A DNA stretch of 64,000 nucleotides from NCBI RefSeq assembly GCF_028368855.1, contig NZ_JAQNCY010000002.1, forward strand, positions 62,001 through 126,000, in the 5' to 3' direction. This document shows, piece by piece, positions 2,846-43,912 of the stretch. The notes under the pieces are model-generated. The model had not been told where the DNA came from, made no database searches, and saw nothing but the letters and a program-made list of their open reading frames with translations. The stretch comes from Leisingera sp. SS27. Lineage in GTDB: Bacteria > Pseudomonadota > Alphaproteobacteria > Rhodobacterales > Rhodobacteraceae. Position 1 is the first letter of the stretch, and every line of letters starts with the position of its first letter. The translations under genes were made by a program, and so were the position numbers.

Positions 2846-2974
2846 CTCCCGCGCCTGCAGGCCCACCGGCTGCGCCGGGCGGCCTTGGCAGCCTTGGGCG
2901 CCGCGCCGCGCAAGGCGCGGCGCCACGCCCAACGGGCTGAAGCCTTCCGCCAGGAAGGGGAAGCCGGGCGGGAG
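2846..2974 (-). repeat. Three-hairpin intergenic repeat, copy A (inverted orientation)
   Basis: 129 bp element starting CTCCCGCGCC and ending GGGCGGGAG, the reverse orientation of the copies at 39109 and 43783. The central hairpin has 18 nt arms starting TTGGGCG and ending CGCCCAA, around a 3 nt loop, with two mismatched pairs. Flanking small hairpins are CCGGCtgcGCCGG and CTTCCgccaGGAAG. It lies between the convergent dgoK-like and DinB-like genes. Confidence 0.75.
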
Positions 2975-2998
2975 ACCCCTGCCTGCGGGACCGCTGCC

Positions 2999-3817
2999 TC
3001 ATCCGGCCTGTGGCGTTGCCTGCCCGGCCCTGTACCGTGTTCCCTTCAACGGCGGGTTCTCTGCCGGGCCGGCAAAGCACTGGGCGATTTGCATCCAGCA
3101 TTCGGCAGCAGTGCCGGAGACCTGCAAACCGGTATCAGCAAAGCCGCGCACTTGGGTGACAACCTGGGCAAACTCCACCGCTGAGCCTTTGACATAATCC
3201 TCATCCTGCGGAGCATTCCATTCCCAAACCGCCCCCGACGGCCCGGTGAGCTGCACAAAGGGCGCAGGCTCCGGCACGTCCAGACCGCGGTTGTGGAAGC
3301 TCCAGCCATAGGTGGCCACCCCCAGATGCGCGATGTTGCGGATGCGATCCTGCTCCTGCCGCTCATGCCCCAGGAGGTCGAATACCTCCTGCCCGTGCGC
3401 CCAAGTCTCCATCTGCCGGGCGGTGACCGAGCTGAGCGCGCTCATGTCCGGTCCGATCCATTTCAGCCGCGCCTTGGGGTCCGCTGCGGCAAAAGCATCG
3501 GCACAGCGTTCCGCACCGCCCTGCCAGGCCGCAAACAGCGCCCGGCCGCTGAGGCCATCCAGCCAGGGAAACTGGCATTCGAGGATGGAGCGGCCCGCCT
3601 GCATGTCCCGCAGGACCGGCGCGATGAAGGCGGCAAAGGCGGCCTCCCCCTGCAAAGACGCTTCTGCCGCTGCGTTGAACAGATGCAGGTGCCCCAGCAC
3701 ATGATCAATGGTCCAGCCCTTGAACTGGGTTTCGCTGTGAAACTCTGCTTCTGGCAGGTCCTCAAGGATGGCTGCCAGGGCGCGGCTCTCTGAACGGAAA
3801 TCTTCGGCCTGCTGCAT
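2999..3817 (-). CDS. DinB-like metal-binding protein (TIGR03084 family)
   Basis: 272 aa protein of the DinB / maleylpyruvate-isomerase-like superfamily, matching the TIGR03084 pattern. It has an N-terminal four-helix bundle with metal-ligand histidines in GWTIDHVLGHLHLFN (about residues 35-50) and METWAHGQEVFDLLG (about 135-150). FNAPQDEDYVKGSAVEFAQ-type C-terminal sequence follows (here NAPQDEDYVKGSAVEF). Such proteins bind a divalent metal and some use a low-molecular-weight thiol; the reaction here is unknown. The start at 3817 follows AAAAGGGGAGAGCC. It lies 100 bp downstream of the RNA methyltransferase on the same strand and may be transcribed with it. Confidence 0.75.
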   Translation of the reverse strand: MQQAEDFRSESRALAAILEDLPEAEFHSETQFKGWTIDHVLGHLHLFNAAAEASLQGEAAFAAFIAPVLRDMQAGRSILECQFPWLDGLSGRALFAAWQGGAERCADAFAAADPKARLKWIGPDMSALSSVTARQMETWAHGQEVFDLLGHERQEQDRIRNIAHLGVATYGWSFHNRGLDVPEPAPFVQLTGPSGAVWEWNAPQDEDYVKGSAVEFAQVVTQVRGFADTGLQVSGTAAECWMQIAQCFAGPAENPPLKGTRYRAGQATPQAG

Positions 3818-3917
3818 GGCTCTCCCCTTTTGTTCCGCCCGGCAGCATAGCCGGGCCGGAAGCAGGCCGGAAACAGAGACCACACGTCACAAAATGAGCC
3901 GCCGTGGCGGCCGCGCG

Positions 3918-5036
3918 TCAGGGCAGCGGACCTGTCTTGAACAGGCGTATTTTCAGGCCGCCGTGTGCAACGGGTGCGCCGGACGGCAGGAACGGCAGAT
4001 TGGTTGCCTTGGCCAGGCTGGTTTCCGACGTGACGATACCCACGCGCCAGCCCGAAAACCGCTCCGTCAGCACCTGCCCCAGCGCGCCGTAAAGGGCATA
4101 GAGCAGTTTCTTGTTGCCGATCCGGGCGCCATAGGGCGGGTTGACGATGATCAGGCCCGGCGGGCCATCCGGGCGTTGCAGGTCGCTGACCGCAGCCTGG
4201 GCAAAACGGGTGCAATCGGCCACGCCCGCCCGCTCCGCATTGGCAGCGGCCATCTCCACGGCGCCCGCATTGCGGTCGGAGCCATGGAACAGCAGGTCCG
4301 TTTCCCGCGTCTCGCCTTGTTTTTTCATTTCGGCCCAGGCGTCCACGTCAAAAGTTGCCAGCTGCTCAAAGGCAAAGCTGCGGCTGCGGCCGGGCTGCAG
4401 GCCCTTGGCGATCTCGGCGGCCTCGATCACGAAGGTGCCGGAACCGCACATCGGGTCCACCACCGGCTCAGTGCCGTCGTAACCGCATTCGCGCAGGAAC
4501 ATGGCGGCAAGGTTTTCCCGCATCGGCGCCTTGCCGACCGCGGATTTGTGGCCGCGCTTGTGCAGCCCCTCGCCCGAGGTGTCGACGCTGAAGACGCAGA
4601 GGTTGTCCTCGATGCGCAGCTTCACAGTCAGATCGGCGTCTTTGCTGACAGGGGCGCCGAGGGTTTCGGCAATTGCCTTTTCCACCCGCTGGGCAGCGGC
4701 GCCGGCGTGGTAGATCTTGGACTTCTTGTTGGTGGAAACCTCCACCTTCACCGGCACATCCGGACGCAGCACCTCGCCCCAAGGAAACTTGCGCGACCGT
4801 TTGTCGAGCTGGGCCAGGTGGAAGGCACGGAATTCGCCGATCCGCGCCAGCACCCGCGCCGCGCCGCGCACCGACAGGTTGGCGCGCCGGACCTCCGCCC
4901 AGTTGCCCTGCACCGTGACCCCGCCCGGCACGGCCTTGGGCACGGCAAAGCCCAGCTCCATGGCCTCGGCCAGCAGCGCCTGTTCCAGCCCCGGCGGTGC
5001 GGTCAGGAAGATCTCGAATGTGGTGTCTTGCGTCAT
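3918..5036 (-). CDS. THUMP-domain class I SAM-dependent RNA guanine-N2 methyltransferase (RlmL-type)
   Basis: 372 aa. The N-terminal ferredoxin-like/THUMP region (about residues 1-165) is followed by a Rossmann methyltransferase domain. APMRENLAAMFL and VVDPMCGSGTFVIEAAEIA are the usual substrate and SAM-binding motifs, and IVNPPYGARIG is the catalytic N-P-P-Y loop of N2-guanine methyltransferases. The family (RlmL N-terminal half, YcbY-like, TrmN/Trm14) methylates guanine N2 in 23S rRNA or tRNA. Exact target nucleotide is not deducible. The start at 5036 has a strong AAGGAGGGCAGC ribosome site. It is divergent from the glycerol transporter operon. Confidence 0.85.
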   Translation of the reverse strand: MTQDTTFEIFLTAPPGLEQALLAEAMELGFAVPKAVPGGVTVQGNWAEVRRANLSVRGAARVLARIGEFRAFHLAQLDKRSRKFPWGEVLRPDVPVKVEVSTNKKSKIYHAGAAAQRVEKAIAETLGAPVSKDADLTVKLRIEDNLCVFSVDTSGEGLHKRGHKSAVGKAPMRENLAAMFLRECGYDGTEPVVDPMCGSGTFVIEAAEIAKGLQPGRSRSFAFEQLATFDVDAWAEMKKQGETRETDLLFHGSDRNAGAVEMAAANAERAGVADCTRFAQAAVSDLQRPDGPPGLIIVNPPYGARIGNKKLLYALYGALGQVLTERFSGWRVGIVTSETSLAKATNLPFLPSGAPVAHGGLKIRLFKTGPLP

Positions 5037-5199
5037 GCTGCCCTCCTTAGACGCAAAGCCCAGCCGCGGCGACTGTTTTTTCAAATCCCGCCTTTGGAGA
5101 AACTGCCGTTGCGTTACAACCGGAAATGCTGCAATGCGGCATCGCCGCTGCACTCAACTGAAGCCTCAAATAACAAGCAAATTCAATAAGCTACGCATT

Positions 5200-5219
5200 A
5201 CTAAAAAATTAGTTTGACA
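5200..5219 (+). promoter_or_regulatory. Possible operator and -35 region of the glycerol transporter operon
   Basis: ACTAA-AAAA-TTAGT (5200-5213) is a small perfect inverted repeat directly abutting TTGACA (5214-5219), about 85 bp before glpV. The TTGACA is a consensus -35, but no good -10 lies 17 bp downstream. An overlapping repressor site (for example for a DeoR-type GlpR) is inference. Confidence 0.35.
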
Positions 5220-5303
5220 ACATAATCCAACCTATGAAAGCTCTATGCCAGTCAGGTGCAGCCAACGTGCAGCTGGCCTCAAGAGACTTTCAGGGAGGAA
5301 GAG

Positions 5304-7037
5304 ATGCGTAAGTATCTTCTCTCCGCAGCAGCCGTTTGTGCGGTGGTTGCGGGATCAATTGGCTATGCCGACGAAATGGCGGCCAAAAAATGGATTGATG
5401 AAGAGTTCCAGCCGTCGGCTTTGACCAAGGATGAACAGCTGTCGGAGATGCAGTGGTTCATCAAGGCCGCTGAACCTTACAAAGGCATGGAGATCAACGT
5501 GCTGTCGGAAGGCATTCCGACGCATAGCTATGAATCCGAAGTGCTGACCAAAGCGTTTGAAGAAATCACCGGCATCAAGGTGAACCACCAGATCCTGGGT
5601 GAAGGCGAGGTCGTTCAGGCCGTGCAGACCCAGATGCAGACCAAGCGGAACCTCTATGACGGCTACGTCAATGACTCCGACCTGATCGGCACCCACTCGC
5701 GCCTGCAGCTGGCGTACAACCTGACCGACATGATGGCAGGCGAGTTCAAGGACGTGACCAACCCCGGCCTCGATCTGGATGACTTCATGGGCACCCAGTT
5801 CACCACCGGCCCGGACGGCGACCTGTACCAGTTGCCCGACCAGCAGTTCGCGAACCTCTACTGGTTCCGCAAGGACTGGTTCGACCGCGAAGACCTGCAG
5901 GCCGCGTTCAAGGAAAAATACGGCTATGACCTGGGCGTTCCGGTCAACTGGTCCGCATATGAGGACATCGCCGAGTTCTTCAGCGAACAGGTCAAGGAAA
6001 TCGACGGCACGGCGATCTATGGCCACATGGATTACGGCAAGCGCGCGCCGGACCTCGGCTGGCGGATGACCGATGCCTGGCTGTCGATGGCCGGTGCCGG
6101 CTCCAAGGGTGAGCCGAACGGCGTGCCGATCGACGAATGGGGCATCCGCATGGAAGAAGGCTCCTGCAACCCGGCTGGTGCCAGCGTGACCCGCGGCGGC
6201 GCGGCAAACGGCCCGGCAGCGGTCTATGCGATCCGCAAGTGGGACGAATGGCTGCGCAAATACGCGCCTCCGGGCGCAGCGTCCTATGACTTCTACCAGT
6301 CGCTGCCGGCACTGGCCCAGGGCAATGTGGCACAGCAGATTTTCTGGTACACCGCCTTTACCGCCGACATGGTGAAACCCCAGTCCGAAGGCAACAACAC
6401 CGTCGACGCCGAGGGCAACCCGCTGTGGCGGATGGCGCCCAGCCCGCACGGCCCCTACTGGGAAGAAGGCCAGAAGGTCGGTTATCAGGACGTGGGTTCC
6501 TGGACCTTCCTCAAGTCCACCCCGCTGGACCGCGCACAGGCTGCCTGGCTTTATGCCCAATTCGTGGTGTCCAAGACCGTGGACGTGAAAAAATCGCACG
6601 TTGGCCTGACCTTCATCCGCGACTCTTCCGTCAACCACGAGAGCTTCACCGAGCGCGCACCCAAGCTGGGCGGCCTGGTCGAGTTCTACCGCTCACCTGA
6701 CCGCGTGGCATGGTCGCCGACCGGCATCAACGTTCCGGATTACCCGAAGCTGGCCCAGATCTGGTGGCAGCAGATCGGTGACGTGAACTCCGGCGCCTTC
6801 ACGCCGCAGGAAGCGATGGACCGTCTGGCCGAGGAAATGGACATCACCATGGGCCGTATGCAGCGTGCAGACGAGCAGGCGAATGTCTATGGCGGCTGCG
6901 GCCCGCGCCTGAACGAAGAGAAAGACGCGGAGTGGTGGTACGCCAATGGCGGCGCCAAAGCCCCGCTGGAGAACGAGAAGCCGCAGGGCCAGACCGTCAA
7001 CTATGACGAGCTGGTGGCCCGCTGGGCAACCAACTAA
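5304..7037 (+). CDS. glpV: Glycerol ABC transporter substrate-binding protein
   Basis: 577 aa periplasmic binding protein. It has a signal peptide (MRKYLLSAAAVCAVVAGSIGYADE, cleavage near residue 22) and a mature part with PYKGMEINVLSEGIPTHSYE and GTQFTTGPDGDLYQLPDQQFANLYWFRKDWFDR, typical of the large binding protein of the GlpSTPQUV glycerol system first seen in rhizobia. It should capture glycerol and pass it to GlpP/GlpQ. The assignment depends strongly on the whole operon (two ATPases, two permeases, a DUF2160 protein), whose order V-S-T-P-Q-U is complete. The ATG at 5304 follows GGGAGGAAGAG. No glpD, glpK or glpR is in the window, so metabolism of the imported glycerol is encoded elsewhere. 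Confidence 0.87.
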   Translation: MRKYLLSAAAVCAVVAGSIGYADEMAAKKWIDEEFQPSALTKDEQLSEMQWFIKAAEPYKGMEINVLSEGIPTHSYESEVLTKAFEEITGIKVNHQILGEGEVVQAVQTQMQTKRNLYDGYVNDSDLIGTHSRLQLAYNLTDMMAGEFKDVTNPGLDLDDFMGTQFTTGPDGDLYQLPDQQFANLYWFRKDWFDREDLQAAFKEKYGYDLGVPVNWSAYEDIAEFFSEQVKEIDGTAIYGHMDYGKRAPDLGWRMTDAWLSMAGAGSKGEPNGVPIDEWGIRMEEGSCNPAGASVTRGGAANGPAAVYAIRKWDEWLRKYAPPGAASYDFYQSLPALAQGNVAQQIFWYTAFTADMVKPQSEGNNTVDAEGNPLWRMAPSPHGPYWEEGQKVGYQDVGSWTFLKSTPLDRAQAAWLYAQFVVSKTVDVKKSHVGLTFIRDSSVNHESFTERAPKLGGLVEFYRSPDRVAWSPTGINVPDYPKLAQIWWQQIGDVNSGAFTPQEAMDRLAEEMDITMGRMQRADEQANVYGGCGPRLNEEKDAEWWYANGGAKAPLENEKPQGQTVNYDELVARWATN

Positions 7038-7089
7038 GGCCTCCTCCCGGTCCGGCCAGCGATCCCCATCATCTGGCCGGGCTGCATCA

Positions 7090-7127
7090 GGCCCCGGAGA
7101 CTCTTTCCCGTCATCCGGGGCCTTTTT
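7090..7127 (+). terminator. Intra-operon terminator/attenuator between glpV and glpS
   Basis: GGCCCCGGA (7090-7098) pairs with TCCGGGGCC (7114-7122), 15 nt loop, followed at once by TTTTT. It sits inside the 156 bp gap after the binding-protein gene. Partial termination here would give more binding protein than membrane complex, the usual stoichiometry for ABC importers. Confidence 0.75.
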
Positions 7128-7193
7128 CCCCAAGACCCCAGCGCGCCCCTGCCCCGGGCGCAAACAGGCCGCCTGCCGGAAAGTCAAAGCAAG

Positions 7194-8258
<1,065 letters not shown>

Positions 8259-8265
8259 GGCATCA

Positions 8266-9365
<1,100 letters not shown>

Positions 9366-9366
<1 letters not shown>

Positions 9367-10229
9367 TGAAAACCGAAAACCAGAAAGCCTGGTTCTTTGT
9401 CCTGCCGGTGCTGGCGCTGGTCGCCTTCAACGCGCTCATTCCGATGATGACGGTGGTCAACTACTCAGTGCAGGAGACCTTTGGCGACAATGTGTTCTTC
9501 TGGCAGGGGCTGGACTGGTTCCAGCAGATCCTGCGCTCTGACCGGTTCCACGCGGCGCTTGGCCGCCAGTTCATGTTCACCTTCCTGATCCTGATCATCG
9601 AGGTGCCGCTGGGCATCGCCATCGCGCTGTCAATGCCGCGCAAGGGGTTCTGGGTGCCGGTGTGCCTGGTGCTTATGGCGCTGCCGATGCTGATCCCGTG
9701 GAACGTGGTCGGCGCGATGTGGAACATCTTCACCCTGCCTGACATCGGTCTGCTGGGCTACTTCCTGAACCATGTGCTGGGCATCTCTTATGACATGACG
9801 CAGGATCCGGTGGCGGCCTGGGTGACCATTGTCACCATGGACGTCTGGCACTGGACCTCGCTGGTGGTGCTGCTTGCCTATGCCGGGCTGGTGTCGATCC
9901 CCGACGCCTATTACCAGGCGGCCAAGATCGACGGCGCCTCCAACTGGGCGGTGTTCCGGTTTATCCAGCTGCCGAAGATGAAGACGGTGCTGACCATCGC
10001 CATCCTGTTGCGCTTCATGGACAGCTTCAACATCTACACCGAGCCGTTCGTGCTGACCGGGGGCGGTCCCGGCAACTCCACCACGCTGTTGTCGATCGAC
10101 CTGGTGAAAATCGCGCTTGGCCAGTTCGACCTCGGCCCCGCCGCTGCCATGTCGCTCATCTATTTTGCAATCACGCTCCTGGTCTCCTGGCTGTTCTACA
10201 CGCTGATGACCAAGGACGATCTGAACTAA
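9366..10229 (+). CDS. glpP: Glycerol ABC transporter permease GlpP
   Basis: 287 aa inner-membrane subunit with about six transmembrane helices (WFFVLPVLALVAFNALIP at the N-terminus, SLIYFAITLLVSWLFYTLM at the C-terminus). The cytoplasmic EAA loop that docks on the ATPase reads YYQAAKIDGASNWAVFRFIQLPKM. A periplasmic-side EPFVLTGGGPGNSTT motif is typical of carbohydrate/polyol MalF-type permeases. The ATG overlaps the glpT stop by one base, indicating translational coupling. It forms the channel with GlpQ. Confidence 0.87.
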
Positions 10230-10242
10230 GGGAGGGATCCAG

Positions 10243-11040
10243 ATGCAGAAACGATCCATCGTCCCCATCGTCTATATCCTGTTCCTGATGCTGCCGATCT
10301 ACTGGCTGGTGGCGATGAGCTTCAAGACGACCAATGAAATCCTGTCGGGCTTCTCGCTGTTCCCGCAGACCTTCACGCTGGACAACTACAAGACCATCTT
10401 CACCGATCCCAGCTGGTACTGGGGCTACATCAACTCGATCCTTTACGTGTCGATCAACACGGTGATCTCCATCGCGGTGGCGCTGCCGGCGGCCTACGCC
10501 TTCAGCCGCTACCGGTTCCTGGGCGACAAGCAGCTGTTCTTCTGGCTCTTGACCAACCGGATGGCGCCTGCCGCGGTGTTCGCGCTGCCGTTCTTCCAGC
10601 TTTATTCCGCCGTCGAGCTGTTCGATACCCACCTGGCTGTGGCCCTGGCGCACTGCCTGTTCAACATTCCGCTGGCGGTCTGGATCCTCGAGGGCTTCAT
10701 GGGCGGCGTGCCCAAAGAGCTGGACGAAACCGCATTCGTTGACGGTTATTCTTTCCCGCGCTTCTTTGCGACGATCTTTGTGCCGTCGATCAAGGCGGGC
10801 GTGGGTGTGGCGGCCTTCTTCTGCTTCATGTTCTCCTGGGTGGAACTGCTGCTGGCCAAGACCCTGACCGCGGTTGCAGCCAAGCCGATTGCCGCAACCA
10901 TGACCAAGACCGCGTCCAGCGCGGGTTATGAACTGGGGCTGCTGGCGGCGGCCGGCACATTGACAATCATTCCGGGCGCCATCGTGATCTGGTTTGTCCG
11001 CAACTACATCGCGAAGGGTTTCGCGATGGGGAGGGTGTAA
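10243..11040 (+). CDS. glpQ: Glycerol ABC transporter permease GlpQ
   Basis: 265 aa MalG-type permease with about six membrane helices. The EAA loop is ELDETAFVDGYSFPRFFATIFVP. The start follows AGGGAGGGATCCAG, 13 nt after glpP. The stop codon overlaps the glpU start codon by one base (TAATG). The name glpQ is that used for the rhizobial transporter and should not be confused with the enterobacterial phosphodiesterase GlpQ. Confidence 0.87.
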   Translation: MQKRSIVPIVYILFLMLPIYWLVAMSFKTTNEILSGFSLFPQTFTLDNYKTIFTDPSWYWGYINSILYVSINTVISIAVALPAAYAFSRYRFLGDKQLFFWLLTNRMAPAAVFALPFFQLYSAVELFDTHLAVALAHCLFNIPLAVWILEGFMGGVPKELDETAFVDGYSFPRFFATIFVPSIKAGVGVAAFFCFMFSWVELLLAKTLTAVAAKPIAATMTKTASSAGYELGLLAAAGTLTIIPGAIVIWFVRNYIAKGFAMGRV

Positions 11041-11318
11041 TGCTTTCATGGATGGCCTGGACCTGGCCCACTGCCCTGTTGTTCATCGGCATCTTCAGCG
11101 CCATCGGCGTGCTGATCATCGCCGAAATCCGCCACCCCGGCGGCGCGGCCCGCAAGGGCGTGCTTGGCCTCACCACCACCCGCGGCGACCGGCTGTTCAT
11201 CAGCCTATTGGGCACCTCCTACATCTTCCTGGCCTGGCTGGGACTGGTGGGGATGCCGCTGTGGTGGCCGCTAGGGCTGTCGATTGCATGGGGCATCTTC
11301 TGCTTCTGGAAGGTCTGA
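11040..11318 (+). CDS. glpU: DUF2160 small membrane protein, GlpU-like
   Basis: 92 aa with three hydrophobic segments: WTWPTALLFIGIFSAIGVLIIA, ISLLGTSYIFLAWLGLVGM and WWPLGLSIAWGIFCFW. DUF2160 proteins occur almost always at the end of this transporter operon; their role is not known. The start shares a base with the glpQ stop. In the family the gene is conserved beside the two permeases, so an accessory or assembly subunit of the complex is the most reasonable inference. Confidence 0.85.
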   Translation: MLSWMAWTWPTALLFIGIFSAIGVLIIAEIRHPGGAARKGVLGLTTTRGDRLFISLLGTSYIFLAWLGLVGMPLWWPLGLSIAWGIFCFWKV

Positions 11319-11332
11319 CGCCCGCGGATCGG

Positions 11333-11439
11333 GTCAAGGGGGCCGCAGGCCCCGCCAAAGGCGGCTTGCCCTTGACGCGTAAGACCAAAACACCATTGAG
11401 ACAGGCCTTGAAGGCAAACCTGCCCTTCAAGGCCGTCTC
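11333..11439. repeat. Two stable hairpins in the gap after glpU
   Basis: The 303 bp gap to the BlaI-like gene holds two nested structures. In the first, GTCAAGGG (11333-11340) pairs with CCCTTGAC (11369-11376), with GGGGCC/GGCCCC and a GCC/GGC helix inside. In the second, GAGAC plus GGCCTTGAAGG (11398-11414) pairs with CCTTCAAGGCC plus GTCTC (11424-11439), with one bulged A. Neither is followed by a T-run. Transcription may still end here. The rest of the gap is AT-rich promoter sequence for the next operon. Confidence 0.5.
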
Positions 11440-14352: not shown

Positions 14353-14353
14353 C

Positions 14354-34179: not shown

Positions 34180-34207
34180 CATTTTGTTTCTGAAAACCGG
34201 TCCCGGC

Positions 34208-35280: not shown

Positions 35281-35293
35281 CTCTGCTCCTTCC

Positions 35294-36022
35294 TCAGCGG
35301 CTCGCATCCGGGGTGAAGGTCGAGAAGTCGACCAGCGTGCCCAGCATCTGCAGGTAGGCGATCAGCGCATCGGCCTCGGAAACCCCCGGCTGGCCATCAA
35401 AGTTGCGCACATTGATGTCCTCGCCATAGCGCTCCAGCAGCCCGTCATAGTCGCTGTCCGGATCGGCCTGAGCGCGGAAGTCTGCCTGCGCGGCTTCGAT
35501 CATCTCATCCGTGTAGGGCGTGCCCAAGAGCGCGTTGGTGGCCATGATGTCGCCAATGTATTTGCCGTCGATCTTCTTCTCTTCGAGGAAGCCGTATTTC
35601 GGCATCACCGATTCCGGCACCACCGACTGCGGGTCGCGCAGGTGGTCTGCGTGCCACTCATCCGAGTAGCGGCCGCCAACGCGGGCCAGGTCCGGCCCGG
35701 TCCGCTTGGAACCCCACTGGAACGGACGGTCGTACATCGACTCCGCCGCCAGCGAGTAATGGCCGTAACGTTCGACCTCGTCGCGCATCGGACGAATCAT
35801 CTGGCTGTGGCAGACATAGCAGCCCTCCCGGATATAGACCTCGCGGCCCGCCATTTCGAGCGGGGTGTAAGGACGCATGCCCTCCACCTTCTCGATGGTG
35901 TTTTCCAGGTAGAACAGCGGTGCGATCTGCACCAGGCCGCCGATGGTCACGACCAGGAAGCTGAAGATCAGCAGCAGGGTCGCGTTGGTCTCGAGGATCT
36001 TATGTTTGTCGAGAATAGACAT
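35294..36022 (-). CDS. ccoO: cbb3 oxidase mono-haem subunit CcoO
   Basis: 242 aa. N-terminal anchor [24 protein letters not shown], then [46 protein letters not shown] with the single CYVCH haem site, and [19 protein letters not shown]. It forms the core electron input with CcoP. It begins 14 bp after ccoN in the same operon. Confidence 0.96.
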
Positions 36023-36036
36023 TGCTTCCTGGCTCC

Positions 36037-37647
36037 TTATTCAGCCGGAACCGGGACCGTCAGGCTGGCCTCTTTGGCCGGCGCCTTACGGACCGTCATC
36101 CACAGGTTGTAGCACATGATGACCGCCCCAGCGAGGAACATCACCCCGCCCAGGCCCCGCACCACATACATCGGGAACTTCGCAGCCACGGTGTCGGCAA
36201 AGGAGTTCACCAGGAAGCCGTTGGCGTCCACTTCACGCCACATCAGGCCTTCCATGATCCCGGTCACCCACATCGACGCGGCATAGAGAATGATGCCGAT
36301 GGTGGCGAGCCAGAAGTGCCAGGAAACCAGACGCAGGCTGTAAAGGCTCTCGCGTTTCCACAGTGCCGGCACCAGATAGTAGAGCGCACCAAAGGTGATC
36401 ATGCCGTTCCAGCCCAGCGCGCCGGAGTGCACGTGGCCAATGGTCCAGTCAGTGTAGTGCGACAGCGAGTTCACCGCACGGATCGACATCATCGGGCCTT
36501 CAAAGGTGGACATGCCGTAAAAGCCCAGCGAGATCACCATCATCCGGATCACCGGGTCGGTGCGCAGCTTGTCCCAGGCGCCCGACAGGGTCATCAGGCC
36601 GTTGATCATGCCGCCCCAGGAAGGCATCCACAGGATCACCGACATCACCATGCCCAGGGTCGAGGCCCAGTCAGGCAGCGCGGTGTAGTGCAGGTGGTGC
36701 GGACCGGCCCAGATATAAAGGAAGATCAGCGCCCAGAAGTGGATGATCGACAGCTTGTAGGAGAACACCGGACGCTCGGCCTGCTTGGGGATGAAGTAAT
36801 ACATCATGCCCAGGAAGCCCGCGGTCAGGAAGAAGCCCACAGCATTGTGGCCGTACCACCACTGGATCATCGCGTCCTGCACGCCCGGCCACACGATGAC
36901 CGACTTGGAGCCCCAGATCGAGACCGGGATGGTCATGTTGTTGATCAGATGCAGCATCGCCACGGTGACGATGAACGACAGGTAGAACCAGTTCGCCACA
37001 TAGATATGCGGCTCCTTGCGCTTGATGATGGTGCCCAGGAACACCGCCAGATAGGCAACCCAGACGATGGTCAGCCACAGGTCGACGTACCATTCGGGTT
37101 CGGCGTATTCCTTGGACTGGGTGCCGCCCAGCAGATAGCCGGTTGCCGCCAGCACGATGAACAGCTGGTAGCCCCAGAACACGAACCACGCCAGATTGCC
37201 GCCCCACAGCCGCGCCGCGGAGGTCCGCTGCACGACGTAAAAGGAGGTTGCGATCAGCGCGTTGCCGCCAAAGGCAAAGATCACCGCGGAGGTGTGCAGC
37301 GGGCGCAGGCGGCCAAAGTTGGCCAGACCGTCGGCCCATTCAAAGTTCAGCGCCGGAAATGCCAGCTGAAACGCGATGAAGGTCCCCGCCAGGAACCCGA
37401 CCACACCCCAGAAGGCGGTTGCAATCGTGCCAGCGCGGATCACGCTGTCGAAATACTCATTTTCCAGACCGGCGGCGGCCACTTTCGGCTCGTCGGTTCT
37501 GCGCAAAGTGTAGAGAAACAGGCCGCCAGCCACGATCATCACAATGATCGCGTGCACCTGGTAAGCCAGATCCCGCGCGTAATTGGTGCCGATCATCGCA
37601 AACAGCGTGACCAGACCAAGCGCTATCAGCTTGATATAATTAGACAT
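36037..37647 (-). CDS. ccoN: cbb3 oxidase catalytic subunit CcoN
   Basis: 536 aa, about 12 helices, C-family haem-copper oxidase reducing oxygen with high affinity. Ligand histidines: [17 protein letters not shown] (low-spin haem), [23 protein letters not shown] (CuB), [14 protein letters not shown] (CuB pair) and [16 protein letters not shown] (haem b3 and low-spin). The start [13 protein letters not shown] at 37647 fits the family better than an ATG six codons upstream. A perfect FNR box lies about 99 bp upstream, shared with a divergent universal stress gene. The assembly genes ccoGHIS are not in the window. Confidence 0.96.
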
Positions 37648-37739
37648 CTTGCGTCCCTTTGCCATGCCCCCGCGAATCCTGCGGATACGGGAACGTTATT
37701 AGACCGCGCCCTTCATGCAAAACGCGCCTTCCTGCTGCC

Positions 37740-37753
37740 TTGATCTGCATCAA
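37740..37753. promoter_or_regulatory. Perfect FNR box between ccoN and the universal stress gene
   Basis: TTGAT-CTGC-ATCAA, centred about 100 bp from both divergent start codons. It is positioned to serve ccoNOQP, the universal stress gene or both. Confidence 0.88.
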
Positions 37754-37852
37754 GACAAATCCGGGCAACATGTGACACTTCTTCCCGAGCAGTGAAACTC
37801 CACGCACCAGCACCCGTCAGGATTGCGGTGCACTTTTCGCCGAGAGGTGTCA

Positions 37853-38692
37853 ATGTCCTACAAGTCCTTACTTACCGTTCTGACAGCTGCGGACACCGCA
37901 GCGGCGCCATTGGCGCAAATTGCGGCCCTTGCTGAGGAATTCGGCGCCCATGCCGATGCGCTCTGCCTTGGTGTCGACCGCACCCAGACAGGATACTACT
38001 ATGCCGGCGCCAATGCGATGGTGCTGCAGGAAACCTTGGCCCGCGCTCAGGAAGAGGCCGAAGAGGTCCAGTCTCAGGCAGACGCGGCCCTGAAGCAGGC
38101 AGGCGTTGCCTATGGCACCGACAGCGGTGTTGCCCAGATCGCCGACATCGGCCGCCATGTGGCGCGGCAGGCACGGTTCTCCGACCTGGTGGTGCTGGGC
38201 CAGCCCTATGGATCCGGCAAACGTGCCGAGGCAGAACCGATCGTCGAAGCCGCCCTGTTCGAGGGCCGCGCGCCGGTGCTGGTGGTGCCGGACAAGGGCG
38301 CGCCGCTGAAGGCACCGAAAACGGTTCTGGTGGCCTGGAACGAAAGTATTGAGGCGATGACCTCGATCCGCCGTGCGATGCCCTTCCTGCAGGGTGCTGA
38401 ACTGGTCCGCATCGCGGTGATCGACCCGCCGCAGCATGGTCCCGAACGCTCCGATCCCGGCGGCATGCTGGCGCAGATGCTGGCCCGTCACGGTGTAAAA
38501 TGCGAGATCGACGTGCTCAGCAAGACGCTGACCCGGGTGTCGGACGTTCTGAACCGCCACGCCGCCGACACCGCCGCCGACTTGATCGTGATGGGCGCCT
38601 ACGGCCACTCCCGCTTCCGCGAGGCGATCCTGGGCGGCGCCACCCGCAACATGCTGGAGCAGGCCGCGGTGCCGGTTCTGATGGCGCACTAA
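37853..38692 (+). CDS. Universal stress protein, tandem UspA domains
   Basis: 279 aa with two UspA folds (about 1-145 and 155-279). The second holds the ATP-binding signature LIVMGAYGHSRFREAILGGATRNML; the first has a degenerate LVVLGQPYGSGKRAEAEPIVEAAL. Double-domain Usp proteins beside ccoN are common in Rhodobacterales. The perfect FNR box upstream predicts induction at low oxygen. The start at 37853 follows GAGAGGTGTCA. A strong terminator lies 24 bp downstream. Confidence 0.9.
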   Translation: MSYKSLLTVLTAADTAAAPLAQIAALAEEFGAHADALCLGVDRTQTGYYYAGANAMVLQETLARAQEEAEEVQSQADAALKQAGVAYGTDSGVAQIADIGRHVARQARFSDLVVLGQPYGSGKRAEAEPIVEAALFEGRAPVLVVPDKGAPLKAPKTVLVAWNESIEAMTSIRRAMPFLQGAELVRIAVIDPPQHGPERSDPGGMLAQMLARHGVKCEIDVLSKTLTRVSDVLNRHAADTAADLIVMGAYGHSRFREAILGGATRNMLEQAAVPVLMAH

Positions 38693-38715
38693 AGCCTTCC
38701 CGGATTACAATCATA

Positions 38716-38741
38716 AAGGCGCCCCGCAGGGCGCCTTTTTC
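38716..38741 (+). terminator. Rho-independent terminator of the universal stress gene
   Basis: AAGGCGCCC (38716-38724) pairs with GGGCGCCTT (38729-38737), loop CGCA, followed by TTTCTTTC. Confidence 0.88.
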
Positions 38742-38762
38742 TTTCGTGCCAGCGGGCAGGTC

Positions 38763-39020
38763 CTAGCCTGCCTTGCGGATCAGACCGATCAGGAACAGCA
38801 GGATCACCGCGCCGATGGTGGCGTGGATCAGCGACCAGAAAAAGCCGCCGCCCGCGGCAAACCCCAGTGCCGGAAAGATGGTGCCCGCGAGGAAAGCGCC
38901 CACCACGCCGACGATGATGTTGCCAAGGATGCCAAAGCCGCGCCCTTGCATGATCTTGCCGGACAGCCAGCCCGCCAGCGCTCCGATGACCAGCATCCCG
39001 ATCAGACTTCCAAACTGCAT
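38763..39020 (-). CDS. GlsB/YeaQ/YmgE family stress-response membrane protein
   Basis: 85 aa with three membrane helices: SLIGMLVIGALAGWLSG, GILGNIIVGVVGAFLAGTIFPALG and LIHATIGAVILLFLIGLIRK. The G-ILGNIIVGVVGA-LG pattern is that of the transglycosylase-associated/GlsB family, small membrane proteins linked to envelope stress. The start MQFGSLIG at 39020 has GGAGGC at the right distance; an ATG four codons upstream is less likely. Convergent with the universal stress gene. Confidence 0.85.
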   Translation of the reverse strand: MQFGSLIGMLVIGALAGWLSGKIMQGRGFGILGNIIVGVVGAFLAGTIFPALGFAAGGGFFWSLIHATIGAVILLFLIGLIRKAG

Positions 39021-39108
39021 TGCCGCCTCCATGTTGTGTTACCGCAATAGTAGAACACAACAGAACCGCCGGGTCACCCGCTGCCGTCAGGTCCGTAAAT
39101 CCAAGCTT

Positions 39109-39236
39109 CTCCCGCCCGTCGTCCGCCTTTCCTGCGAAAGGCGCCCTCCCGTTGGGCCAGGCTCGGCGCGATGCGCCGAGCCTGGCCCAAGGCCGCCAGC
39201 GGGTCCGGCATTGCCGGGCACGTGCGGGCGCGGGAG
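39109..39236 (+). repeat. Three-hairpin intergenic repeat, copy B
   Basis: 128 bp, bounded by CTCCCGCCCG and CGGGCGCGGGAG. Central hairpin: an 18 nt arm at 39152-39169 (starting TTGGGCCAGG) exactly complementary to 39173-39190, loop GAT. Side hairpins are GCCTTTC/GAAAGGC and CCGGC/GCCGG. It lies in the gap before the convergently read end of the SHMT-like gene. Confidence 0.85.
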
Positions 39237-39267
39237 AGCCCCGTTTCAGCGTCCCGCCTGTCTGGCC

Positions 39268-40587
39268 TCAGCGCACGTAGTGCATGCCCTGGAAGGCGGC
39301 GCGGAATTCGGCGACCTCTGCCGCCATGGCTGCCGGGTCCTCCGTCCGCAAGGCCCGGGTGATCAGCTCCGCCAGCTGGGGCGCATGCTCCACGGTGACG
39401 CCGCGGCGCACCAGTTCCGGCGTGCCGATGCGCAGCCCGTTCATGTCACCCGGCACCTCCGCGATGGGCAGGCCGATGCCGCAGGCCAGGAAGCCCGTAT
39501 TGCGCAAATGCTTCGATGCTGCCTGGCCGCCACCGAACTCCGCCGCCTCCAGTGCAAACTGATGCGACTGCGTCATACCCCGCGCGGCGGCAAAGACCGG
39601 CAGCCCCTGCCCTTCCAGCGCCTCGGCCAGGGCCAGCGACAGATCGGCCATTGCCTTGGCATAGCCTGCGCCATGCTCCACCCAATCGAGCAGGCTCATC
39701 GCCAGCGCCGCCGACTTTGCTGCATCAAAGTTTGCAGTCATGCCGGGAAAGGCGATGGCATCCAGACGCTCGGCGATCTCTGCGTCATTGCTGACGATCA
39801 GCCCGCCAGCCGGTCCGCCCAGGCTCTTGTAGGTGCTCATCGTCATCATATGCGCACCCTGCTCCAGCGGGTTGGCCCAATGGCCGCCGGCAATCATGCC
39901 GCATTGGTGGGCCGCGTCGAACAATACCTTGGCGCCCACCGCATCGGCAATCGCCCGCACCTCTGCCACCGGATGCGGGAACAGGTTGAGACTGCCGCCA
40001 ATTGTGATCAGCTTGGGCCGCACCTTGAGCGCCAGATCGCGCAGCGCATCCAGATCGACAGTATAGCCATCCGCATCCACCGGCGCCGGATGGGTCTTCA
40101 GCCCGTAAAGGCCCGCGCAGCCGCCCGCGTGATGGGTGACATGGCCGCCCACCGCGGCAGGCGGCGCGATGATGGCATCGCCGGGTTTGGTCAGCGCCAT
40201 GAAGCCATAGAGGTTCGCCAGCGCACCCGAGCCCACGCGGATCTCCGCGTAACGCGCGTTGAAAACCTGTGCCGCAACCTCAGCGGCGATCACCTCGATC
40301 TCCTCGATGGCCTCCAGCCCCATTTCGTATTTGTCGCCGGGATATCCCAGCGATGGACGGCTGCCGAGACCGGTTGCCAAGAGCGCCTCTGCCGCCGGGT
40401 TCATCACATTGGTGGCCGGGTTCAGGTTGAAGCAGTCGCAGTCGTGGATCTGCGTATTGAGATCCGCCAGCGCGGTCAGCCGCGCAGCGGTCTCCGCGCT
40501 GGTGGCGGCAGCAGTATTGGCGGCCACGGTCTGCACGTAGTCCTCGCAGGCGGCGGGCACCCAGTTGCGGCGGGCAAGCTCTGTCAT
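39268..40587 (-). CDS. Serine hydroxymethyltransferase-like PLP enzyme
   Basis: 439 aa fold-type I PLP enzyme of the SHMT family. SRPSLGYPGDKYEMGLEAIEEIE, VGSGALANLYGFMALTKPGD, LFDAAHQCGMIAGG (Asp and His binding PLP) and MMTMSTYKSLGGPAGGLIV with the Schiff-base Lys. In true GlyA the last motif reads THKTLRGPRGG; here Tyr replaces His and Ala replaces Arg, and GlyA's usual N-terminus is altered. A specialised aldolase, such as an alpha-methylserine or related hydroxymethyltransferase, is plausible. A divergent LysR gene is probably its regulator. The start has AAGGAGACAGACC upstream. Confidence 0.8.
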   Translation of the reverse strand: MTELARRNWVPAACEDYVQTVAANTAAATSAETAARLTALADLNTQIHDCDCFNLNPATNVMNPAAEALLATGLGSRPSLGYPGDKYEMGLEAIEEIEVIAAEVAAQVFNARYAEIRVGSGALANLYGFMALTKPGDAIIAPPAAVGGHVTHHAGGCAGLYGLKTHPAPVDADGYTVDLDALRDLALKVRPKLITIGGSLNLFPHPVAEVRAIADAVGAKVLFDAAHQCGMIAGGHWANPLEQGAHMMTMSTYKSLGGPAGGLIVSNDAEIAERLDAIAFPGMTANFDAAKSAALAMSLLDWVEHGAGYAKAMADLSLALAEALEGQGLPVFAAARGMTQSHQFALEAAEFGGGQAASKHLRNTGFLACGIGLPIAEVPGDMNGLRIGTPELVRRGVTVEHAPQLAELITRALRTEDPAAMAAEVAEFRAAFQGMHYVR

Positions 40588-40662
40588 GGTCTGTCTCCTT
40601 CACGCGGTGGCGGATTTCTCTCTGCCTCCATCAAAGCGCTGATGCCCCCTTGCCTGCAAATC

Positions 40663-40678
40663 AGTTTTCCGAAAAACT
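40663..40678. promoter_or_regulatory. Putative LysR operator
   Basis: AGTTTT-CCGA-AAAACT, 6 bp arms, between the divergent SHMT-like and LysR genes, 27 bp before the LysR start. Confidence 0.45.
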
Positions 40679-40704
40679 AGGGCTAGAAAAATTGAGGCTC
40701 ATGT

Positions 40705-41577
40705 ATGGCTGTTTCCCCGCCCCCTGCCCAATCGCTGCCGCTGACCGCCCTGCGTGCGTTTGAGGCCGCCGCGCGGCTGGGCGGTTTCTCTGCCGCCGCG
40801 CAGGAGCTGGGGGTGACGCCCGGTGCGGTCTCAGCCCAGATCAAATCGCTGGAAGACGCGCTGCAAGCACAGCTTTTCATCCGGCGCCCGAAACAGGTCA
40901 CGCTGACGGCGCTAGGCGCGCGGGTGCTGCCGGAACTCTCCGCCGCGTTCGACCAATTGAACGCCGCCTCAAGGCTGATGCGCGAAGAAGCCCAGCCCAG
41001 CACCGTGCATATCGCCACCCTGCCAGCGATTGCCCAGTTCTGGCTGTCGCCGCGCCTGCCCGCTCTCAGGGCCGCGATGCCGGAGATGGCGGTTTCGGTC
41101 ACTGCCGCCGAGGAGCCGCCGAACCTCAAGCGCACGCCCTATGACCTGTGCCTGTTCTTTGGCGGCGATCAGGGCGAGGTGATTGAACAGGACGTGATTT
41201 TTCCGGTCTGCGCGCCCGCGCTGGCAGAGCAGCTGCGCACGCCAGCGGATCTGCAGGATGTGCCTTGCCTGTCAGACGCTGTCTGGGCGCAGGACTGGGA
41301 GCACTGGCTGCAGGCCGCCTGCCCGGGCGAAGTTCTGCATCTGAGGGGCCCGGAGTATTCGCTCTACTCGCTGGCGGTGGAGGAGGCCGTCAATGGCGCA
41401 GGGGTTCTGATCGGTCATCAGGCCCTGGTGGCGCCGCTGTTGGACAGCGGCCGGCTGGTGGCACCTTTTGCAGTCAGAGCCGAGCTGCCGCGCGCGCTGC
41501 GGCTGTGGAGCCTGCGCCCCTCCGGCCCGCGCAGTCCCGGTGCTCGGGTGGCGCGCTGGCTGACGGAAAACAGTTAG
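40705..41577 (+). CDS. LysR family regulator (GcvA-like)
   Basis: 290 aa. HTH: LPLTALRAFEAAARLGGFSAAAQELGVTPGAVSAQIKSLEDALQAQLFIRRPKQVTLTALG. Effector domain: VHIATLPAIAQFWLSPRLPALRAAMPEM. GcvA-like regulators commonly control glycine or serine metabolism and often face their target gene. Here the divergent partner is SHMT-like, which fits. It ends 22 bp before the convergent fnrL stop. Confidence 0.9.
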   Translation: MAVSPPPAQSLPLTALRAFEAAARLGGFSAAAQELGVTPGAVSAQIKSLEDALQAQLFIRRPKQVTLTALGARVLPELSAAFDQLNAASRLMREEAQPSTVHIATLPAIAQFWLSPRLPALRAAMPEMAVSVTAAEEPPNLKRTPYDLCLFFGGDQGEVIEQDVIFPVCAPALAEQLRTPADLQDVPCLSDAVWAQDWEHWLQAACPGEVLHLRGPEYSLYSLAVEEAVNGAGVLIGHQALVAPLLDSGRLVAPFAVRAELPRALRLWSLRPSGPRSPGARVARWLTENS

Positions 41578-41599
41578 GAGCTGCAGGGATAAGGCGGCC

Positions 41600-42340
41600 T
41601 CAGCCCAGGAAGCCGCCGTCGCTGTCGTCGCCCGCCTCTTCCATCAGGCGGCGCATGTCAGGCACGGTCACATGCCGCTTGCCTTCCAGCTCGATGATGC
41701 CGTCGCGTTTCAGCGCCGAGATCTGGCGGCTCACGGTTTCCAGCGTCAGGCCCAGGTAGTCGGCCATTGCCTCCCGCGTCAGCGGCAGGTCGAACACCAT
41801 CCGGTTGGTGGCTCCGCCCGGCGTCAGCGTGGCATCACGCCGCGCGATGATGGCCAAAAGGCTGGCGATCTTCTCGCGCGCGGTCTTGCGGCCCAGCACC
41901 AGCATCCACTCGCGCGCGGCGTCGAGTTCGTCCAGGGTCATCTCCAGCAGCCGGTGGGCGATATGGGGCGTGCGCTCCATCAGCTCCTCGAACGGCTTCT
42001 TGCGGAAACAGCACATCACCACATCGGTGGTTGCCGCCACATCATAGGCCGCGCCTTCGCGGCCCGGGCGGCCGACAAAATCGCTGGGCAGCAAGAGGCC
42101 CACCATCTGGGTGCGCCCGTCCTCCATCGTCTGGGTCAAAGATGCGATGCCGGAGACAACAGACCCCACGAAGTTCATCACGTCGCCGGACCAGATGATC
42201 GGCTGGCCGGCCTCATAGGTGCGGTAGTATTTGATCGCATCCAGCTCCTCCAGCTCGTCCGCGTTGCAGCGCGCGCAAACGGCACGGTGGCGGATCGGGC
42301 AGTCACCGCATCTGGAATGGGAAAGGACTGGAGCGTTCAT
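41600..42340 (-). CDS. fnrL: Oxygen-sensing Crp/Fnr regulator FnrL
   Basis: 246 aa. N-terminal cysteines C11, C14, C22 and C25 (CGDCPIRHRAVCARC) plus a later cysteine pair at 110-111 can ligate a 4Fe-4S cluster lost in oxygen. The HTH recognition helix TLETVSRQISALKRDGII carries the E..SR residues that read TTGAT. It should activate the boxes at 30999, 37740 and 42354. The last of these lies 14-27 bp before its own start, where binding would more likely repress. The start at 42340 has only a weak ribosome site. An upstream TTG would place the FNR box inside the coding region and is rejected. Confidence 0.92.
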   Translation of the reverse strand: MNAPVLSHSRCGDCPIRHRAVCARCNADELEELDAIKYYRTYEAGQPIIWSGDVMNFVGSVVSGIASLTQTMEDGRTQMVGLLLPSDFVGRPGREGAAYDVAATTDVVMCCFRKKPFEELMERTPHIAHRLLEMTLDELDAAREWMLVLGRKTAREKIASLLAIIARRDATLTPGGATNRMVFDLPLTREAMADYLGLTLETVSRQISALKRDGIIELEGKRHVTVPDMRRLMEEAGDDSDGGFLG

Positions 42341-42353
42341 ACGTTGGTCCGGT

Positions 42354-42367
42354 TTGATCTGGGTCAA
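42354..42367. promoter_or_regulatory. FNR box between fnrL and hemN
   Basis: TTGAT-CTGG-GTCAA, one mismatch to the perfect dyad. Centre is 42 bp before the hemN ATG and 20 bp before the fnrL ATG. Confidence 0.85.
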
Positions 42368-42402
42368 GGCTCAGGTTCGCGCGTTCCCATAACGGTAATT
42401 GA

Positions 42403-43758
42403 ATGGAACAGAAAGCTCAATTGGCCGAACTGGGTTTGTTTGACGCCAAAGTACCGCGCTATACCAGTTACCCGACTGCGCCGCACTTTGGGAAAGAGAC
42501 TGATTCCGTGCAGTTTTCCAGATGGGTTTCAAAGATTTTGCCCGGCAGCAGCATCTCGCTTTATATGCATGTGCCGTTCTGCCGCAGATTGTGCTGGTTC
42601 TGCGCCTGCCGCACGCAGGGCACCCACTCCGACGCCCCGGTGGAGGCGTACGCCGAGGTTTTGAAGGCGGAAGTTGCCCTGCTCAAAGCGCAGCTGCCCG
42701 AAGGCGTCACCCTGTCGCGCCTGCATTGGGGCGGCGGCACGCCGACCTTGCTGAGTGCGGATCTGATCCGTGATCTGGCGGAGGCAATTACTGAGGCCAT
42801 TCCACTGGCGCCACGGGCCGAATTCTCGGTCGAGATCGATCCGAATGAGATCGGGGACCGGCGGCTGGATGCGCTGGCGGAGGCCGGAATGAACCGCGCC
42901 TCTGTAGGCGTGCAGGATTTTGACAGCACGATCCAGCAAGCGATAGGCCGCATCCAGAGCTTCGAGACCACACGCGCCGCCATCGAGCAGCTGCGCGCGC
43001 ATGGGATCAGCAGTCTCAATGCCGATATCCTCTATGGCCTGCCACATCAGACGCCCGCAATCATGACCGAAAGCGTGCAGAAGCTGCTGTCGCTGACGCC
43101 GGACAGGGTGGCGGTCTACGGCTATGCCCACGTGCCCTGGATGGCCAGCCGGCAAACCATGATCCGCTCTGACGCACTGCCGACGCCGGAGGCGCGGCTG
43201 GAGCTGTTCGAAACCGCCCGCCAGCTGTTTCAGTGGGACGGTTACCGGGAGATCGGCATCGACCATTTCGCCCGGCCCCACGATGGCCTCTCAGTGGCAC
43301 AGCAAACCGGGCGGCTGCGGCGCAACTTCCAGGGCTATACCGACGATCCGGCAGAAGTTCTGATCGGCATCGGCGCCTCGGCAATCTCACGCTTTCCGCA
43401 AGGATATGCGCAGAACGCGCCGGCCACCTCGGCCTATGTCCGCGCAATAAGGGACGGGCAATTCGCCACCGCCCGCGGCCATGCCTTTGGCGGCGAGGAC
43501 CTGCTCAGGGCGCGGCTGATTGAGGCGCTGATGTGCGATTTCCGCATCTGCCGCGAAGAGATCCTGTCACGCTTTGCAGTGACCGGCGCCCGGCTGGAAC
43601 GGATGCTGAAGCAAGCCAGTGCAGCCTTTCCGGAGATGCTGACTGTATCGGCAAAGGGTCTGGCCATCCGCGAAGAGGCGCGCCCGCTGACCCGGATGAT
43701 CGCCCGCAGCTTTGACGCCTATGATCTGAGCCAGGCAGGCCACAGCACCGCCATCTGA
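42403..43758 (+). CDS. hemN: Oxygen-independent coproporphyrinogen III oxidase HemN
   Basis: 451 aa radical SAM enzyme that oxidatively decarboxylates coproporphyrinogen III without oxygen, giving haem at low oxygen. VPRYTSYPTAPHF is the family N-terminus. HVPFCRRLCWFCAC holds the CxxxCxxC cluster motif with the extra HemN cysteine, and HWGGGTPTLL, FSVEIDPNE and NRASVGVQDF follow. The ATG at 42403 has no evident ribosome site. With the FNR box centred at 42360.5, class II activation would place transcription start at about 42402, implying a leaderless or nearly leaderless message. Confidence 0.95.
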   Translation: MEQKAQLAELGLFDAKVPRYTSYPTAPHFGKETDSVQFSRWVSKILPGSSISLYMHVPFCRRLCWFCACRTQGTHSDAPVEAYAEVLKAEVALLKAQLPEGVTLSRLHWGGGTPTLLSADLIRDLAEAITEAIPLAPRAEFSVEIDPNEIGDRRLDALAEAGMNRASVGVQDFDSTIQQAIGRIQSFETTRAAIEQLRAHGISSLNADILYGLPHQTPAIMTESVQKLLSLTPDRVAVYGYAHVPWMASRQTMIRSDALPTPEARLELFETARQLFQWDGYREIGIDHFARPHDGLSVAQQTGRLRRNFQGYTDDPAEVLIGIGASAISRFPQGYAQNAPATSAYVRAIRDGQFATARGHAFGGEDLLRARLIEALMCDFRICREEILSRFAVTGARLERMLKQASAAFPEMLTVSAKGLAIREEARPLTRMIARSFDAYDLSQAGHSTAI

Positions 43759-43782
43759 TCCCCTTTGTTCAAAGGCAAGGTT

Positions 43783-43912
43783 CTCCCGCCCGTCGCCGCC
43801 GCGCCTATGGCGCAGCGCTCCCGTTGGGCGAGGCTCAGCGCCCTCGGCGCTGAGCCTCGCCCAAGGCCGCCAAGGGGGTCCGGCGCAGCCGGGGCACCTG
43901 CGGGCGCGGGAG
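43783..43912 (+). repeat. Three-hairpin intergenic repeat, copy C
   Basis: 130 bp, same orientation as copy B. Bounded by CTCCCGCCCG and CGGGCGCGGGAG. The central 19 nt arm at 43824-43842 (starting TTGGGCGAGG) is exactly complementary to 43846-43864, loop CTC. Side hairpins are GCGCC/GGCGC-like and CCGGC/GCCGG. It follows hemN. Confidence 0.85.

What the first reader, a model, noticed from the sequence alone, without database searches (positions are those of the whole stretch)
2846..43912. A dispersed, ~130 bp three-hairpin repeat family
At least three full copies (2846-2974 inverted, 39109-39236, 43783-43912) and one half copy (52061-52130) share the same ends (CTCCCGCCCG / CGGGCGCGGGAG), about the same length and three hairpins in order. 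The central stem is 18-19 bp with a 3 nt loop beginning TTGGGC. Sequences of stems differ, but base pairing is kept (exact pairing in copies B and C despite different bases), so structure is under selection or the copies arose by gene conversion of palindromes. All are in gaps after gene ends. They have no coding capacity. This looks like a REP/BIME or non-autonomous RNA-type element of this lineage; no transposase partner is in the window.
Basis: partly seen in the sequence, partly recalled or inferred. Interest (0 to 1): 0.7.

Follow-up and report, generated by a model that had tools for sequence, protein, structure and literature searches.

The report
Family of paired-hairpin gene-end repeats
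The marine bacterium's genome carries some 80-90 copies of a small DNA element that folds into hairpins and sits just behind the ends of genes, where related species have kept it too, perhaps because it helps to end or protect the gene's RNA message.

Summary
The repeats are real. The unit is CTCCCGCC - hairpin 1 - GTTGGGC - hairpin 2 (~75-85 bp).

Copies occur in 21 of 21 genus genomes searched (39-120 each) and patchily in the rest of the family (52 of 293 genomes). 76 of 79 lie in gaps bordering a gene's 3' end; the 61 with a codirectional gene upstream start a median 23 nt after its stop. Stems differ between sites but keep pairing, with compensatory changes between species at one site. 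At four measured sites the element is 81-91% identical, the spacer before it 38-51%.

No target duplication and no Y1/RAYT gene were found in this genome. Best reading: a REP/BIME-like family kept as a transcript 3'-end element (termination aid and/or 3' hairpin protection). Function is inferred; there were no RNA data, and a DNA-level role stays open.

The parts
2846..2974 (-). Copy A, long form (two units head to head), between convergent genes ending at 2787 (+) and 2999 (-)
39109..39236 (+). Copy B, long form; 31 nt behind the stop of the minus-strand gene 39268-40587
43783..43912 (+). Copy C, long form; 24 nt behind the stop of gene 42403-43758 (+), convergent with 44077-45666 (-)
52056..52131 (-). 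Copy D, short form (hairpin 1 + hairpin 2); starts about 40 nt downstream of the SRP RNA gene (52171-52269 -) and faces gene 51135-51968 (+)
39109..39115 (+). CTCCCGC end, pairs with 39230-39236 (GCGGGAG) in the long form; near-invariant over copies
39152..39190 (+). Central stem of copy B: 18 bp, 3-nt loop
43824..43864 (+). Central stem of copy C: 19 bp, 3-nt loop; fully paired in 9 species with double changes at two pairs
39176..39237 (-). Second, diverged unit of copy B in inverted orientation, weakly recognised by the unit model
   Evidence: E=0.037

Best explanation
It is a dispersed palindromic element of Rhodobacteraceae that marks transcript ends. The unit CTCCCGCC - hairpin 1 - GTTGGGC - hairpin 2 starts about 20 nt behind a stop codon, so it would be transcribed as the 3' end of the mRNA (or, at copy D, behind SRP RNA). 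There the strong hairpins would act as a U-tract-free end signal: they would stall or help to release RNA polymerase (perhaps with Rho acting on the C-rich CTCCCGCC stretch) and stop 3'-to-5' exonucleases, fixing the mature 3' end. Between convergent genes one element could serve both transcripts, since the reverse complement also folds. SHOWN: position, predicted structure, compensatory change, retention at the same site between species. INFERRED: transcription of the element, any effect on termination or stability, any protein partner. It probably spread in the past like a REP or MITE and was later kept for this use.
For: Position: of 79 own copies 48 lie in convergent, 28 in tandem, 3 in divergent gaps, 0 in called genes; expected by intergenic bases 12.8 convergent and 26.7 divergent. 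Per gene end (88 convergent, 72 tandem in the control sample) convergent and tandem ends are used about equally. 61 copies have a codirectional gene upstream, median 23 nt from its stop; of the 15 antisense copies in tandem gaps 9 lie within 40 nt of the upstream stop with their other end, one more has a misplaced end. Annotated plasmids show the element between convergent caspase-family and DUF4384 genes in Leisingera and Parasedimentitalea (3 of 14 hits opened). Selection: at site C30:68028 (10 species) element 91% identical, stop-to-element spacer 47% (shuffled 29%) with length 19-23 nt, last 120 nt of the gene 90%; sites C (8 of 9 sequences), B (5 of 9) and C25:50361 (7) similar. Pairing: 15 long forms, 92.3% of cells paired, 16 of 38 pairs with double change, covariation 0.254 against 0.090 shuffled and 0.041-0.106 slid; orthologs at sites C and B have 2 and 5 pairs with double changes. 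Substitution: 20 of 118 element-bearing gene ends, 4 of these by eye inside the element itself, have a canonical intrinsic terminator against 38 of 160 controls. At site D four species (G006, G007, G010, G012) carry another hairpin array in the same place.
Against: No RNA evidence. The terminator deficit is not significant (p 0.18), and about ten element-bearing gene ends carry a canonical terminator between stop and element, where the element would be redundant. Tandem copies show no strand preference (13 sense, 15 antisense) although the unit carries strand-specific near-invariant motifs: this fits a DNA-level role or insertion as well. The central stem holds G-U in 2 of 266 cells, few for RNA-level selection. 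At site C the other spacer, between element and the convergent gene, is 78% identical, so not every spacer there is scrambled. The number of pairs with double change does not exceed the shuffles clearly in the ortholog sets (46, 179 and 189 of 500 shuffles reach it), only cell counts and covariation do; hairpin 1 pairs in just 62.5% of cells over the long forms. Relatives have lost copies. A source on REPs says that they are not specific terminators (PMC1525189, passage).
Confidence: 0.47

Rival explanations
1. REPIN-like selfish repeat: inverted doublets spread by a Y1/RAYT-type or other transposase that is lost or unrecognised; gene ends are merely where insertions do least harm.
For: Inverted doublets (29 of 79), 39-120 copies per genus genome, patchy family distribution; Y1_Tnp in 10 of 35 element-bearing against 0 of 20 element-poor genomes (p 0.009, genomes not independent); no strand preference in tandem gaps; at C25:97144 (G011, G014), C25:110563 (G011) and C26:195332 (G001) the element is missing without a visible remnant, so an empty ancestral site is not excluded.
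Against: No Y1_Tnp in this genome; 25 of 35 element-bearing genomes have none; no element in the 4 Y1 loci held, the one read looking IS200-like by recall. No target duplication (1 of 29, chance 1.8). Other absences leave remnants or partial deletions: site B in G001, G006, G012, C25:110563 in G014, C26:195332 in G018, and where no remnant is seen the gap runs past the element's ends. Elements outlive the spacer before them.
Confidence: 0.27
2. DNA-level element: a nucleoid or topology site (gyrase, IHF or another protein, as proposed for BIMEs) placed where transcription pushes positive supercoils, hence at gene ends in either orientation.
For: No strand preference in tandem gaps, many copies between convergent genes, few G-U pairs in the central stem, near-invariant linear motifs. 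REP sites for gyrase, Pol I and IHF and their convergent position are described in PMC1525189 (passages seen).
Against: Per gene end there is no clear excess in convergent gaps. Stem sequence is free while pairing is kept, and the distance to the stop is short and stable, which fits transcripts better.
Confidence: 0.19
3. Neutral palindromes: pairing is restored by template switching during replication, and the copies are relics without function.
For: The central stem at site B changes as a block between species with pairing kept, and G-U steps are rare.
Against: Does not explain 81-91% identity of elements beside 38-51% for the spacer before them, nor the kept linear motifs.
Confidence: 0.07

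Closest known systems
REP / BIME / REPIN
   Same: Tens to hundreds of intergenic palindromic copies per genome, inverted doublets, position after gene ends and between convergent genes, compensated palindromes (PMC2817692, PMC3116915, PMC1525189: passages seen)
   Different: Unit of ~80 bp with two hairpins, no GT(A/G)G head, no Y1/RAYT gene in this genome, copies at shared sites between species
RIME (Rhizobium-specific intergenic mosaic elements)
   Same: Class, intergenic position and ~100-130 bp size with large palindromes (size recalled; one search shows only the citation)
   Different: Other lineage; sequences were not compared here
Bidirectional intrinsic transcription terminators
   Same: Place just behind the stop, shared by convergent genes, compensatory stem evolution (PMC5381666, passages seen)
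   Different: No U-tract as a rule, two or more hairpins, shared linear motifs, repeat-family ancestry
STAXI motif (PMC2864571, passage seen)
   Same: Dispersed structured motif for which an RNA or single-stranded DNA role was discussed
   Different: Other lineage; the element matches no Rfam family

Membership tests
REP/REPIN-RAYT system | High-copy intergenic palindromic repeat | tested here: met
   79 copies at E<=0.01, 0 in called genes
REP/REPIN-RAYT system | Inverted doublet as the unit, singlets decaying | tested here: inconclusive
   29 of 79 are doublets; singlets rank slightly but not significantly lower in model score (median rank 45.5 against 34, p 0.18); a singlet site is 91% identical over 10 species
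REP/REPIN-RAYT system | RAYT (PF01797) gene flanked by the repeat | tested here: not met
   0 in own genome; no element in the 4 Y1 loci held out of 26 matches in 10 genomes
REP/REPIN-RAYT system | GT(A/G)G head next to the palindrome | tested here: not met
   Ends are CTCCCGCC in 76 of 79; head from PMC2817692 (passages)
MITE | Terminal inverted repeats with target-site duplication | tested here: not met
   Inverted ends yes (29 long copies), but flanking direct repeats in 1 of 29, chance 1.8
Intrinsic terminator | GC-rich hairpin followed by a U-tract after a gene end | tested here: not met
   Hairpins and position met; hairpin plus U-tract inside the element at 4 of 118 gene ends, by eye
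Known Rfam RNA family | Score over the gathering threshold | tested here: not met
   No match on the elements (window; three loci)
RIME | Sequence homology to Rhizobium RIME | not tested
   RIME sequence was not at hand
3'-end protecting mRNA hairpin | Transcribed, maps to RNA 3' ends, stabilises mRNA | not testable with these tools
   Needs RNA data

The most novel reading that the evidence does not exclude
The unit is a sequence-specific, U-tract-free, bidirectional 3'-end signal of Rhodobacteraceae: a still unknown factor (or Rho) reads CTCCCGCC and GTTGGGC around interchangeable hairpins, and repeat amplification has supplied ready-made transcript ends to some 4% of the genome's gene ends (118 of about 2,900, extrapolated from the sample).
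Probability: 0.2. Interest if true: 0.75.

Novelty: new variant of a known kind. Interest (0 to 1): 0.5.

Why it matters
REP-like repeats are often treated as selfish or as loosely defined chromosome-organising sites. This family has copies at the same gene ends in different species, with each site's hairpin 1 evolving on its own but still paired while the spacer before it scrambles. That makes the question of what palindromic repeats do at gene ends testable in culturable marine bacteria.

Tried and rejected
RAYT/Y1 partner: searched in own genome and 54 others, four loci examined; rejected as a present driver here, though the weak co-occurrence (10 of 35 against 0 of 20) stands. Target-site duplication: the first script misplaced some right ends, corrected; none beyond chance. 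Clean empty sites: sites B, C and D were fetched in 12 genomes each (G004 and G011 were left out of the displayed site-C alignment, and the long-form search found none in them or in G008), and three more sites in 9, 7 and 9 genomes. Result mixed: remnants or partial deletions in some, no visible remnant in others, other sequence at site D; no gap ends exactly at the element's ends. Copy D is also lost or altered in G003 and G008. Homogenisation between copies: not seen for hairpin 1, not excluded for the central stem. G-U pairs over whole predicted folds are only modestly few (6.5% against 10.7% in shuffles). Rfam and phages: nothing on the element. The terminator scan at site D found none, with 0.7 expected by chance, so it says little. 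Literature: ten searches; no title listed describes such a family in Rhodobacteraceae; several lists were capped and the library lacks most subscription journals. Alignment A3 mixed strands and was redone. Odds were lowered slightly for the best reading (0.50 to 0.47) on rechecking, because some absences leave no remnant.

Full report
Observation. Copies A, B and C fold better than all 200 dinucleotide shuffles; D does not stand out. In the window a model of the 5' unit finds these four strongly; its fifth, weak match is the inverted second half of copy B.

Anatomy. Fifteen genome copies show a unit of about 75-85 bp: CTCCCGCC, hairpin 1 with varying sequence, GTTGGGC, two free bases, a GGCGCC-type hairpin 2. 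In the compact long form hairpin 2 is fused into the central stem TTGGGC...GCCCAA, and a second, diverged unit follows in reverse (GCCCAAGG - hairpin 3 - GCGGGCGCGGGAG), so that both ends pair. Some copies are two recognisable units facing each other (C25:311583 + and C25:311678 -). By the rule, 29 of 79 copies are long and 50 short.

Copy number and spread. Own genome: 91 model matches at E<=1, 79 at E<=0.01, 150 candidates scored; the 12 weaker ones were left out of the counts below. All 21 genus genomes searched, own included, have 39-120 at E<=0.01. Of 295 family genomes 54 have at least one at E<=0.001, two of them of the genus; at most 19 candidates were scored in each, so numbers there are floors. 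Of 16 genomes outside the family 3 have one borderline match (E 0.003-0.008). The genus is Leisingera by equal contig lengths (G010 C1 and L. aquimarina, 4,250,010 bp; G001 C10 and L. daeponensis, 141,796 bp): inference. With copy C as query no phage record matches and 14 plasmid records do, 12 Leisingera and 2 Parasedimentitalea.

Position. Genes were called with a home-made codon-usage caller. Of 79 copies 48 are convergent, 28 tandem, 3 divergent, 0 inside called genes. Against 264 kb of window plus ten 20-kb stretches the convergent excess and divergent deficit are strong, but a convergent gap has two gene ends; per gene end the density is about equal. 61 copies have a codirectional stop upstream, at a median of 23 nt. 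In tandem gaps 13 copies are sense and 15 antisense; 9 of the 15 lie within 40 nt of the upstream stop with their other end. Among 32 short convergent copies the CTCCCGCC end is nearer to its stop in 22 (sign test p 0.05, Wilcoxon 0.004): a weak polarity. Annotation of three plasmids agrees with the placement.

Structure. Hairpin 1 in 15 paralogs: covariation 0.537 against 0.193 shuffled, 63.6% of cells paired against 43.0%; the number of pairs with double change is reached by 113 of 500 shuffles. Long forms: 15 sequences (paralogs and some orthologs), 92.3% of cells paired, 16 of 38 pairs with double change, covariation 0.254 against 0.090 shuffled; the structure came from one of them, so the slid controls (0.041-0.106) are the fairer yardstick. 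Hairpin 1 is the weakest part (62.5% of cells), the central stem the strongest after the invariant outer helix (99.6%, 2 of 266 cells G-U). Orthologs: site C, 2 pairs with double changes, central stem fully paired in 9 species; site B, 5 such pairs; site C30:68028, 1. In these three sets the count of such pairs is reached by 46, 179 and 189 of 500 shuffles; the cells with double change and the covariation score are reached by 1, 0 and 12. The outer helix CTCCCGC/GCGGGAG never varies and says nothing by itself.

Retention. C30:68028 (10 species): element 91%, spacer 47% (shuffled 29%), gene end 90%. Site C (8 sequences): element 87%, spacer 38%, gene end 79%, but the far spacer to the convergent gene 78%. 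Site B: 86, 51, 70. C25:50361 (7): 81, 51 (a 3-nt spacer), 87. Of 24 high-scoring copies in relatives 22 have a flanking gene that matches one flanking an own copy; of 138 in the other fetched loci, some of them Leisingera too, 49 do, by a looser rule that lets paralogs in (the 24 are the search's best matches, hence biased to well-kept sites). Shared sites reach Pseudophaeobacter, Falsiruegeria and a Roseobacter bin. Absences: remnants or partial deletions at site B (G001, G006, G012), C25:110563 (G014), C26:195332 (G018); no visible remnant at C25:97144 (G011, G014), C25:110563 (G011), C26:195332 (G001), with gaps that run past the element. At site D the element is replaced by other hairpins in four genomes and lost or altered in G003 and G008. 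Central-stem types recur at different sites.

Mobility. No PF01797 in the genome. In 55 genomes 10 have one: 10 of 35 with the element, 0 of 20 without (p 0.009, phylogeny not controlled); the four loci held carry no copy. No target duplication.

Mechanism. The element takes the place of a terminator just behind the stop; canonical terminators are somewhat rarer at its gene ends (20 of 118, 4 of these inside the element, against 38 of 160; p 0.18), though about ten of these ends have one between stop and element. At copy D, behind the SRP RNA gene, four relatives have another hairpin array in its place. I therefore favour a 3'-end role. [quoted passage not shown] that step is inference. The lack of strand preference in tandem gaps and the few G-U pairs keep a DNA-level role open.

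Comparison. It resembles REP/BIME elements in position and architecture (PMC1525189, PMC2817692, PMC3116915: passages) but fails the RAYT and head tests, so it is not filed as REP/REPIN. No title in ten literature searches describes this family.

Noticed in passing
window ~51980-52055; also site C25:50361 in L054, L057, L062, L065 (G009, G006, G010, G008): A second gene-end module (GGGGC..GCCCC hairpin, GGCC..GGCC hairpin, then a CCCCGGGGTATTTT..AGATGAAG-like string) sits beside the element; at C25:50361 it is present in four species and absent in own, G007 and G013. Its core string alone is not over-represented in the window.
   Followed up: partly
L265, L266, L269, L271 (site D in G006, G007, G010, G012); similar hairpins beside own copy C1:168639 (L245): Another hairpin array (CCGGAATTCG..CGAATTCCGG, CCAGGAAAAATCGATTTTTCCTGG, CCGTTTTCC..GGAAAACGG) stands in place of copy D behind the SRP RNA gene.
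   Followed up: partly
L190, L193, L201, L214, L225, L227: A third recurring motif, GCTGAGAAG-like followed by a CCCTGAAG- or CTCAAG-type hairpin, lies downstream of several short copies.
   Followed up: no
L302:430-512 and L302:3426-3499: Two further short dispersed repeats surfaced as multi-copy hits in relatives.
   Followed up: no
window 57623-57843: Cobalamin riboswitch (Rfam RF00174).
   Followed up: no
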